Assembly (NCBI GenBank): GCA_030612585.1
Contig: JAUWNP010000136.1
Span: 1-11,954, forward strand
Length of the DNA stretch: 11,954 bases
Direction of reading: 5' to 3'
DNA from: Anaerolineae bacterium
Lineage (GTDB): Bacteria > Chloroflexota > Anaerolineae > B4-G1
Positions 9,333 to 10,694 of the stretch are shown piece after piece (the first letter of the stretch is position 1; every line of letters begins with the position of its first letter). Below the pieces are notes generated by a model. It had not been told where the DNA came from, ran no database searches, and was given only the letters and a program-made list of their open reading frames with translations. The position numbers were made by a program, and so were the translations under genes.

Positions 9333-9360
9333 TTGACTTCCCCCAGGATGATGGTACAAT
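9333..9360 (+). promoter_or_regulatory. Promoter of the his operon
   Basis: -35 TTGACT (9333-9338, five of six), a 16-nt spacer, and -10 TACAAT (9355-9360, five of six). The expected transcript start is about 9366-9368, only a few bases before the leader-peptide ATG at 9370. Confidence 0.8.
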
Positions 9361-9369
9361 GTTCCAGTT

Positions 9370-9447
9370 ATGTTCATCAAGATATACGCCCCTGCCCACC
9401 ATCATGATCACGAGTCCTCGTCCCTCGACCGGGGAGGACAGGTTTGA
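9370..9447 (+). CDS. hisL: His operon leader peptide with four His codons
   Basis: A 25-codon open frame from ATG 9370 to TGA 9445-9447. Residues 10-14 read HHHDH, so four of five consecutive codons are histidine (CAC CAT CAT GAT CAC, 9397-9411). They fall just before the first arm of the attenuator (9414). The stop lies within segment 2, as expected when free translation must block the antiterminator. The peptide would act as a sensor of charged tRNA-His: ribosome stalling at the His codons favours read-through into hisG. No ribosome-binding site precedes the ATG, which lies about 3 nt from the predicted transcript start, so initiation may be leaderless. Too small for most gene finders. The symbol is by analogy with enteric hisL; there is no sequence homology claim. 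Confidence 0.78.
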   Translation: MFIKIYAPAHHHDHESSSLDRGGQV

Positions 9448-9520
9448 TTTGCCTGAGTAAGTCTGCCTGAACTGATCCTCAAACGTCCAGCCCTCCCGGT
9501 CAACCCGGCGAGGGCTTTTT
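9414..9520 (+). promoter_or_regulatory. Transcription attenuator of the his operon
   Basis: Four segments form mutually exclusive pairs. The 1:2 hairpin pairs GTCCTC (9414-9419) with GAGGAC (9434-9439) and CCC (9422-9424) with GGG (9431-9433). The 2:3 antiterminator pairs GGAC (9436-9439) with GTCC (9485-9488) and GTTTGA (9442-9447) with TCAAAC (9479-9484). It extends into 9491-9493, or uses an alternative register pairing 9429-9437 with 9492-9499. The 3:4 pair is the terminator (9489-9516). A ribosome stalled at the His codons would cover segment 1 and free 2:3. One reaching the stop codon would cover segment 2 and allow termination. All pairings are visible; the mechanism is inferred from known his and trp attenuators. 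Confidence 0.8.
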
Positions 9521-9523
9521 GTT
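9489..9523 (+). terminator. Intrinsic terminator inside the his leader (attenuator 3:4)
   Basis: AGCCCTC (9489-9495) pairs with GAGGGCT (9510-9516), capped by an inner CCGG/CCGG pairing (9496-9499 with 9505-9508, one bulged C). It is followed at once by a T-run (TTTTTGTTTGTTT). It lies before hisG, about 24 bp upstream of the ATG, so it must be bypassed for hisG expression. Confidence 0.9.
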
Positions 9524-9539
9524 TGTTTAGGAGCATCCA

Positions 9540-10694
9540 ATGGACCAACATAATCAACATACCAGCATCCGTCTCTCACTGCCCAGCAAGGGCCGCCTGG
9601 CCCAGGGTGCGCTGGCTTTTCTGGCCGCCTGTGGTCTGAAGGTGGATAAACCCAACCCCCGCCAGTATGCCGCCCGCATCCCGGCCCTGCCCGGCTTGAC
9701 CGTGCTCTTTCAGCGGCCCGGCGACATCGTCGTCAGCGTGCGCGATGGCAGCGTGGACTTCGGTATCACCGGGATGGACATAGTGGCCGAGCGCCAGGGA
9801 AATAACGGCGCGGTACTGGTGCTCCACGAGACGCTCAACTTCGGCCACTGCCGCCTGGCCCTGGCCGTGCCGGAGGCGTGGGAGACGGTGCGCACGGTGG
9901 CCGACCTGGCCGCCTTACCCCCCCCAGCCCCCCCTGCGAGGGGGGGAGGTAGTCAACCGATCTGCTCTACGCCACTTTCACCCCCACCTGTGAGGGGGGG
10001 AGCCCACACCCACACCACGGCCCGGCCGCTCCGGGTGGCGACCAAGTTCCCTCACCTCACCGGCGGCTTCCTGGCCCGCCACGACATCCCCTTCACCCTC
10101 ATCCACGCCGAAGGGACACTGGAGGCCGCGCCGGCCATCGGCTACGCCGACCTCATCGCCGACCTGGTCTCCTCCGGGCAGACGTTGCGCGACAACCGGT
10201 TGCGCCCCCTGGACGACGGCACCATCATCCACTCCCAGGCCGCCCTGATCGCCAACCGGACCGCCCTCAAATCACGCCCGGAGGTGCTGGCCGTGGCCCG
10301 CACGCTGCTCGAGTTCGTCGAGGCGCACCTGCGGGCCGTGGAACACGTAGCTGTGTTTGCCAACGTGCGGGGCACATCGCCCCAGGCCATCGCCCAGCGG
10401 ATGTTTGCTCAGAAGACCCTCGGCGGGCTCCAAGGGCCGACCATCTCGCCGGTGGTCGTCCAGGATGGGAACCCCAACTGGCACGCCGTCCACATTGTCG
10501 TGCACCGGGATCAACTCTTCCAGGCGGTAGCCGAACTGCGCGCCATCGGCGGCAGCGGGGTCGTCGTCACGCCGGTGACCTACATCTTCGAGGAGGAACC
10601 GGCTCGCTACCGGGCGATGATGGAGGCGATTCAGGAGACGGGGGGACGGGGAGACAAGGAGACAGGGAGACAGGGAGATAAGGAGATGAGTTGA
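9540..10694 (+). CDS. hisG: ATP phosphoribosyltransferase, long form, with an in-frame insertion
   Basis: A 384-residue HisG that condenses ATP and PRPP to phosphoribosyl-ATP, the first step of histidine synthesis. Seen are LSLPSKGRLA near the N-terminus, DFGITGMDIVAE, the PRPP-loop region EGTLEAAPAIGYADLI from E191, and SSGQTLRDN. A C-terminal HisG_C regulatory domain (LGGLQGPTISPVVV to TPVTYIFEEEPARY) marks the long, histidine-inhibited form that needs no HisZ. The start at 9540 has AGGAG 6 nt upstream. Two oddities stand out. Residues 127-161 are a Pro/Gly-rich insertion absent from the family, placed between VADLAAL and RPLRVATKF. The last 18 or so residues (GGRGDKETGRQGDKEMS) are encoded by low-complexity repeat DNA beyond the normal end. 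Both keep the frame. Confidence 0.95.
   Translation: MDQHNQHTSIRLSLPSKGRLAQGALAFLAACGLKVDKPNPRQYAARIPALPGLTVLFQRPGDIVVSVRDGSVDFGITGMDIVAERQGNNGAVLVLHETLNFGHCRLALAVPEAWETVRTVADLAALPPPAPPARGGGSQPICSTPLSPPPVRGGAHTHTTARPLRVATKFPHLTGGFLARHDIPFTLIHAEGTLEAAPAIGYADLIADLVSSGQTLRDNRLRPLDDGTIIHSQAALIANRTALKSRPEVLAVARTLLEFVEAHLRAVEHVAVFANVRGTSPQAIAQRMFAQKTLGGLQGPTISPVVVQDGNPNWHAVHIVVHRDQLFQAVAELRAIGGSGVVVTPVTYIFEEEPARYRAMMEAIQETGGRGDKETGRQGDKEMS
9918..10022 (+). repeat. 105-bp in-frame insertion inside hisG
   Basis: Two imperfect palindromes, CCCCCCTGCGAGGGGGG and CCCCCACCTGTGAGGGGGG, flank a short central stretch. The insertion adds exactly 35 codons, rich in Pro and Gly, in a loop where HisG homologues pass straight from the DLA motif to RPLRVAT. 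Composition differs sharply from the surrounding gene. It is the same class of C-run/G-run palindrome as in hisD at 11693-11773. Confidence 0.75.

What the first reader, a model, noticed from the sequence alone, without database searches (positions are those of the whole stretch)
9333..9540. Complete ribosome-mediated attenuator before hisG in a probable Chloroflexota genome
In 208 bp there is a promoter, a 25-codon peptide with four His codons in five, a 1:2 hairpin starting 2 nt after the last His codon, a competing 2:3 antiterminator, a strong intrinsic terminator, and the hisG ribosome-binding site. Every part is placed as the mechanism needs. His leader attenuators are best known in Proteobacteria; I do not recall one described for this type of organism.
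Basis: partly seen in the sequence, partly recalled or inferred. Interest (0 to 1): 0.8.

Follow-up and report, generated by a model that had tools for sequence, protein, structure and literature searches.

The report
Histidine-sensing RNA switch before hisG
A short stretch of DNA before the histidine-synthesis genes of an Anaerolineae-like (Chloroflexota) bacterium has the parts of a switch in which a ribosome stalled for lack of histidine would turn those genes on, and matching parts stand before hisG in dozens of related bacteria.

Summary
Window 9333-9542 holds a promoter, a 25-codon ORF with His-His-His-Asp-His, an intrinsic terminator, a competing antiterminator pairing, and the hisG RBS. 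It is not chance: of the window plus 80 related hisG loci, 80 of 81 have a terminator before hisG, and 77 of those 80 have a His-rich short ORF ahead of a terminator; no other amino acid exceeds 22 of 80. Antiterminator arms match their own terminators better than swapped ones. The 1:2 "protector" hairpin is no stronger than shuffles across 73 leaders. The element does not match Rfam His_leader and is not phylum-wide: it goes with one HisG clade. His leaders also precede hisZ in some other Anaerolineae. Nine searches of an open-access library found no Chloroflexota case. Mechanism: ribosome-mediated transcription attenuation of his genes (computational inference, no expression data). A known kind of device in a new phylum.

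The parts
9333..9360 (+). sigma-70-like promoter, TTGACT - 16 nt - TACAAT, extended -10 (TG)
   Evidence: aligned with three close relatives; similar promoters before most leaders
9370..9447 (+). leader peptide ORF, 25 codons + TGA, MFIKIYAPAHHHDHESSSLDRGGQV; start codon 9 nt after the -10 box, so a 5' UTR of about 2-3 nt (inferred)
   Evidence: His-rich ORF conserved in relatives
9397..9411 (+). sensing codons CAC CAT CAT GAT CAC (His-His-His-Asp-His)
   Evidence: HHH in 67 of 80 regions against a mean of 0.4 in shuffles
9414..9439 (+). hairpin 1:2 (GTCCTC...GAGGAC); present in the window fold, but not above shuffle level in the family
   Evidence: (window z -0.93; mean z of 73 leaders -0.22)
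9427..9437 (+). segment 2, GACCGGGGAGG, 5' strand of the antiterminator
   Evidence: (window 2:3 duplex -20.9 kcal/mol)
9491..9501 (+). segment 3, CCCTCCCGGTC, shared by antiterminator and terminator
9489..9516 (+). terminator hairpin 3:4, AGCCCTCCCGG-TCAAC-CCGG(C)GAGGGCT
   Evidence: pair counts
9516..9528 (+). U-tract of the terminator (TTTTTGTTTGTTT)
9529..9533 (+). hisG ribosome-binding site AGGAG, 6 nt before the ATG
9540..10694 (+). hisG, ATP phosphoribosyltransferase, long form with HisG_C
   Evidence: PF01634, PF08029
10702..11954 (+). hisD, histidinol dehydrogenase, runs off the window
   Evidence: PF00815

Best explanation
It is a ribosome-mediated transcription attenuator of the his operon. 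Transcription starts just before the leader ATG (inferred), and a ribosome loads on the near-5'-terminal start codon. If His-tRNA is plentiful, the ribosome reaches the stop codon and covers segment 2 (with help from hairpin 1:2 in some members). Segment 3 then pairs with segment 4 and RNA polymerase terminates at about 9520. If His-tRNA is scarce, the ribosome stalls on the His codons, which covers the 5' arm of 1:2 but leaves segment 2 free. Segments 2 and 3 then pair, the terminator cannot form, and hisG-hisD are transcribed. Shown: anatomy, conservation, matching of competing arms, geometry. Inferred: transcription start, termination, stalling, histidine response.
For: Parts and order. Terminator in 80 of 81 regions. 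His 3-in-6 plus terminator in 77 of those 80; next Ser 22, Pro 18, Ile 14. HHH in 67 of 80 against a mean of 0.4 in shuffles. Own 2:3 duplex mean -16.3 kcal/mol over 75 leaders, against -13.1 (sd 0.28, best of 5000 permutations -14.1) when terminator arms are permuted among loci. 2:3 stem: 14 cells changed on both sides against 5.6 (sd 1.9), 0 of 500 shuffles as high; covariation score 0 of 500. 3:4 stem: 16 cells against 8.2 (sd 2.7), 2 of 500; covariation score 0 of 500. Predicted 2:3 pairing probability 0.74 with a stalled ribosome, 0.18 with a ribosome at the stop codon; stalled above stop by more than 0.2 in 71 of 73 leaders. First genes are hisG and hisD.
Against: No transcript or expression data. 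Hairpin 1:2 is not above shuffles, and with no ribosome the model gives intermediate 2:3 pairing (mean 0.45; 0.65 in the window, about the same as stalled, 0.66). The stalled-versus-stop contrast partly follows from how much RNA is free. Pair counts: for 2:3 the number of pairs with double changes (4 against 3.2, 179 of 500) and of further pair types (12 against 11.0, 151 of 500) are not above shuffles, and a slide by -1 gives 10 double-change cells. For 3:4, slides by -1 and -2 give as many double-change cells (16 and 18) as the structure itself (16), although pairing (83% against at most 64.5%) and covariation score are highest unslid. These shuffles do not remove relatedness. A locus's own arm is the single best partner in only 4 of 75 cases and among the best 19 in 46 of 75. 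Most hisG loci of the phylum lack the element (8 of 130 by scan).
Confidence: 0.92

Rival explanations
1. The leader works, but by conditional translation start or by factor- or protein-dependent control of the terminator. The His-rich peptide would be read only to couple ribosome and polymerase, and another signal would choose between 2:3 and 3:4.
For: The 1:2 element is not above shuffle level, and without a ribosome 2:3 already forms at intermediate probability.
Against: The His run is the standout conserved feature of an otherwise variable peptide, and the segments lie between the His codons and the stop codon region.
Confidence: 0.05
2. A histidine T-box riboswitch or another known RNA family controls hisG, and the His ORF is incidental.
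For: T-boxes control his genes in Firmicutes and Actinobacteria (PMC9413887, passages). Two sub-threshold Rfam matches fall on leaders of relatives: anti-hemB on L025 (E 0.087, 25.5 bits, cut-off 49.5) and ncS54 on L011 (E 0.22, 24.8 bits, cut-off 43).
Against: None of the 21 sub-threshold matches in the window (E<=5) overlaps 9333-9540. No T-box or His_leader match in the window or in 12 related loci at E<=1. The two matches named are far below their cut-offs and look like chance matches to GC-rich hairpins.
Confidence: 0.01
3. Chance: a GC-rich intergenic region with an ordinary terminator and a fortuitous His run.
For: The scan also gives 4 of 220 hits on the reverse strand of hisG upstream regions not chosen for leaders, against 22 of 220 forward.
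Against: 77 of 80 in the HisG-selected set, 0 of 30 upstream of trpE, and the arm permutation.
Confidence: 0.01

Closest known systems
Enterobacterial his operon attenuator (Rfam RF00514 His_leader; E. coli/Salmonella hisL)
   Same: Same mechanism by anatomy: His-codon run, competing stems, intrinsic terminator, hisG first gene (hisL details recalled; general scheme in PMC9413887 passages).
   Different: No match to the RF00514 model; no conserved 1:2 stem shown; leader start codon almost at the inferred transcript 5' end, with no room for a Shine-Dalgarno.
Firmicutes his attenuators (Bacillus cereus group, Peptostreptococcaceae and Lutispora, Erysipelotrichales), PMC9413887 and PMC2965389 (passages)
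   Same: Short peptides with three to five His codons in a row upstream of attenuator and terminator hairpins before his operons; a His leader before hisZ and a hisS paralogue in bacilli.
   Different: Other phylum; no sequence comparison was made here.
Leaderless leader peptides: S. meliloti trpL (PMC7298713), C. glutamicum ilvBNC (PMC11857589), S. lividans leuL, trpL, ilvL and others (PMC8079986); passages
   Same: Attenuator peptide whose start codon is at or near the transcript 5' end.
   Different: Other amino acids and other phyla. There, leaderless starts are stated for S. meliloti and S. lividans and discussed for C. glutamicum; here the near-leaderless state is inferred from promoter spacing.

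Membership tests
Ribosome-mediated amino-acid attenuator (trp/his type) | Short leader ORF with a run of codons for the pathway's amino acid | tested here: met
Ribosome-mediated amino-acid attenuator (trp/his type) | Intrinsic terminator between leader ORF and first structural gene | tested here: met
   80 of 81 regions; pair counts
Ribosome-mediated amino-acid attenuator (trp/his type) | Antiterminator 2:3 exclusive with terminator 3:4 | tested here: met
   permutation of arms; some measures above shuffles, some not
Ribosome-mediated amino-acid attenuator (trp/his type) | Protector hairpin 1:2 that is masked by a stalled ribosome | tested here: inconclusive
   present in the window fold; not above shuffles in 73 leaders
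Ribosome-mediated amino-acid attenuator (trp/his type) | Termination relieved by starvation for the amino acid | not testable with these tools
   needs RNA measurements
Rfam RF00514 His_leader | Match to the covariance model | tested here: not met
   Searches (window, E<=5; 12 of the 80 loci, E<=1): no match
His-specific T-box | T-box model match | tested here: not met
Leaderless leader peptide | Start codon at or near the transcript 5' end | tested here: inconclusive
   promoter spacing 6-11 nt in 68 of 75 leaders; start sites not mapped

The most novel reading that the evidence does not exclude
Anaerolineae evolved their own his attenuator, unrelated in sequence to the proteobacterial one. 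The leader peptide is initiated on an essentially leaderless transcript, and the ribosome terminating at the leader stop codon, not a conserved protector hairpin, is the default off-state. His leaders stand before hisG in one clade and before hisZ in another, so histidine attenuation arose or moved more than once within the class.
Probability: 0.45. Interest if true: 0.55.

Novelty: new member of a known kind. Interest (0 to 1): 0.42.

Why it matters
A 2013 survey with Rfam models held that amino-acid attenuators may have originated in gamma-proteobacteria with very few transfers (PMC3766115, passages). A conserved his attenuator in Anaerolineae that the Rfam model does not recognise argues that the device arises repeatedly and that model-based surveys miss it. 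It also gives a comparatively supported regulatory element in named Anaerolineae strains (Thermanaerothrix, Ornatilinea, Leptolinea, Longilinea, Levilinea), where little gene regulation is known (my recollection). And it poses a testable question: how a ribosome is loaded fast enough on a nearly leaderless leader.

Tried and rejected
Rfam search of the window and of 12 of the 80 loci: no His_leader or T-box. All 21 window matches are below their gathering scores; the miRNA ones at 11695-11954 lie on GC-rich palindromes.

Viral-contig scan for HisG: nothing.

Phylum-wide presence: rejected. A His leader with terminator in 7 of 130 regions by the first scan and 8 of 130 by the relaxed one. L112 and L113 carry a distant HisG (L113 weak, L112 without a match); L112 also rings on the reverse strand and looks spurious. 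26 of the 156 HisG-bearing genomes were not examined.

Class-wide presence before hisG: rejected. 14 of 60 'long-form' hisG regions by scan (form judged by frame length, not by a domain test; two of the 60, L280 and L306, are under 400 nt). L198 has a leader on reading that the scan missed; L299 has only His-Ala-His. Of the 46 without a hit, 19 have an ORF of 150 codons or more ending within about 60 nt of hisG (counted, hisG start approximate). Model R1 gave 15 full-length matches at E<=1.1e-6 in 199 genomes; 14 have hisG next to them; some are in its training set. Many of the weaker listed matches cover only the terminator end of the model.

A Trp attenuator before trpE in the same class: 1 of 30 loci, looks spurious.

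1:2 hairpin as a conserved part: not supported.

Full report
What is there. Between a divergent pentapeptide-repeat gene (6636-8975, - strand, so it starts at 8975) and hisG (9540, + strand) lie a promoter (9333-9360), a 25-codon ORF (9370-9447) with His-His-His-Asp-His, an intrinsic terminator (9489-9516 plus U-tract) and the hisG RBS (9529-9533). hisG is followed by hisD. The leader RNA folds better than all 200 shuffles (z -3.34), with 1:2 and 3:4 formed. Segment 2 (GACCGGGGAGG, 9427-9437) is complementary, with a mismatch, to segment 3 (CCCTCCCGGTC, 9491-9501), the 5' arm of the terminator, so the two stems exclude each other.

Relatives. Named HisG proteins near the top of the search are from Chloroflexota/Anaerolineae; the four closest have no name. 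A scan of species-representative genomes with a HisG alignment (A1, 30 sequences) gave 148 relatives, of which the best 80 were kept as loci. They were chosen by HisG, not by leader. Named strains include Thermanaerothrix daxensis (class Anaerolineae), Ornatilinea apprima, Leptolinea tardivitalis, Longilinea arvoryzae and Levilinea saccharolytica. L001 is labelled Zixiibacteriota, perhaps a binning error. Of the window plus 80 loci, 80 of 81 have a hairpin-plus-T-run terminator within 330 nt upstream of hisG; L055 has none. In those 80 regions a His cluster (3 in 6 codons) in a short ORF followed by a terminator occurs in 77; the next amino acids reach 22 (Ser), 18 (Pro) and 14 (Ile). A stricter run of His found 75 of 80, missing L005, L039, L056, L062 and L066 (L066 has only about 120 nt upstream). 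Three consecutive His occur in 67 of 80 against a mean of 0.4 in dinucleotide shuffles. Upstream of trpE in the same class the His scan gives 0 of 30.

Competing stems. For 75 leaders the best duplex between segment 2 and the terminator's own 5' arm averages -16.3 kcal/mol. Arms permuted among loci give -13.1 (sd 0.28; best of 5000 permutations -14.1), and shuffled segment 2 gives -10.4. The signal is collective: the own arm is the single best partner in 4 of 75 and among the best 19 in 46 of 75, many arms being alike. On an alignment of 44 of the leaders (A2) the 2:3 stem pairs in 88% of cells with 14 cells changed on both sides (5.6 expected, 0 of 500 shuffles as high), but the number of pairs with such changes (4; 179 of 500) and of further pair types (12; 151 of 500) are not above shuffles. 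The 3:4 stem pairs in 83% with 16 such cells (8.2 expected, 2 of 500), but slides by -1 and -2 columns give 16 and 18. Shuffles do not remove relatedness. So the pair counts are supportive, and the arm permutation is the stronger test. Partition-function folding of 73 leaders gives a 2:3 probability of 0.74 with the ribosome on the His codons, 0.18 with it at the stop codon and 0.45 with no ribosome; stalled exceeds stop by more than 0.2 in 71 of 73. Part of that contrast is simply how much RNA is free. In the window the values are 0.66, 0.31 and 0.65. Hairpin 1:2 is not stronger than shuffles over the family (mean z -0.22, 16 of 73 below -1; window -0.93), though the local fold covers at least 40% of segment 2 in 66 of 73. 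The model therefore favours the terminating ribosome as the main guard of segment 2; this is inference.

A feature not in the finding. The leader start codon lies 6-11 nt after the end of the -10 hexamer in 68 of 75 leaders, 73 of them measurable. The exceptions are L002, L010, L019, L021 and L078 by value, and L037 and L044, for which the scan gave no spacing. The script chose the most upstream in-frame start after the -10 box, which favours short spacing; a start at such spacing would be expected in roughly a tenth of cases (my estimate, not computed). With an ordinary start site about 7 nt after the -10 box (recalled) the 5' UTR is 0-4 nt: no room for a Shine-Dalgarno. Leaderless leader peptides are known for S. 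meliloti trpL and for Actinobacteria (passages), so this is not a new principle.

Distribution. In a sample of 201 Chloroflexota genomes, 156 have HisG. I examined 130 upstream regions: 8 have a His leader plus terminator by the relaxed scan (7 by the first). Of the six with the HisG closest to the clade, five ring in the scan and the sixth, L198, has a leader on reading. In 199 genomes of the class, 144 have HisG; of 60 long-form hisG regions examined 14 ring, plus L198 on reading; of 35 short-form and other regions 2 ring. Among all 220 of these hisG upstream regions the scan rings in 22 forward and 4 reverse, so a few single hits may be chance. In genomes with short-form HisG, 6 of 20 regions further upstream have a His leader plus terminator; two of the 20 (L347, L348) were included because they had already rung, so 4 of 18 otherwise. 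In all six the next gene's best NCBIfam model is hisZ, TIGR00443 (partial proteins, below the full-length cut-off). On reading, L348 and L356 have the near-leaderless spacing, while L353 and L346 have a purine-rich stretch before the start.

Known work. Nine searches of the open-access library listed no paper on a his attenuator in Chloroflexota. [quoted passage not shown] PMC9413887 (2022, passages) describes Firmicutes his attenuators and has 'Chloroflexi' only in a reference. PMC3766115 (2013, passages) used Rfam motifs on genomes that include five Chloroflexi. PMC4833913 (2016, passages) surveyed leader genes in many groups including Chloroflexi, which it calls too thinly sampled; its bulk tables were not seen. 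Older comparative studies (Lopatovskaya 2010, Vitreschak 2004) were seen only as citations, so novelty is provisional.

Verdict. A his attenuator by anatomy and comparison, 0.92 confident; its response to histidine is inferred. A known kind in a new phylum, not matched by the Rfam model, with a near-leaderless leader.

Noticed in passing
L345, L346, L347, L348, L353, L356: A second His-leader type with a different terminator (often AAGACTAGT...ACTAGTCTTTTTT) before hisZ in Anaerolineae with short-form HisG: 6 of 20 regions, two of which were preselected.
   Followed up: partly
L220:1-360: A close relative of the window attenuator (67.9 bits) followed not by hisG but by what look like joined remnants of hisB and hisE (read by eye, motifs recalled); the genome (G217) has no HisG match. 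A decayed his operon that kept its switch, or an incomplete assembly.
   Followed up: partly
window 11625-11954: Two 144-nt copies, 93% alike, of a GC-rich palindromic segment inside the hisD frame, encoding PPPPAPPPTLGEG-like peptide.
   Followed up: no
window 9912-10026: HisG carries a proline/glycine-rich insertion (residues about 125-162) that varies in length among its closest relatives and is absent in others.
   Followed up: partly
window 10630-10694 and 6540-6655: The HisG C-terminus (ETGGRGDKETGRQGDKE) and the N-terminus of the - strand gene at 4943-6655 carry similar GD-ET-GQ repeat peptides, suggesting one dispersed DNA repeat read in coding frames.
   Followed up: no
window 2971-4842: rtcB RNA ligase and archease side by side on the - strand.
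   Followed up: no
L113: A GTG-started His leader (NHHHH) with a very strong terminator before a distantly related HisG outside the clade; possibly an independent case.
   Followed up: partly
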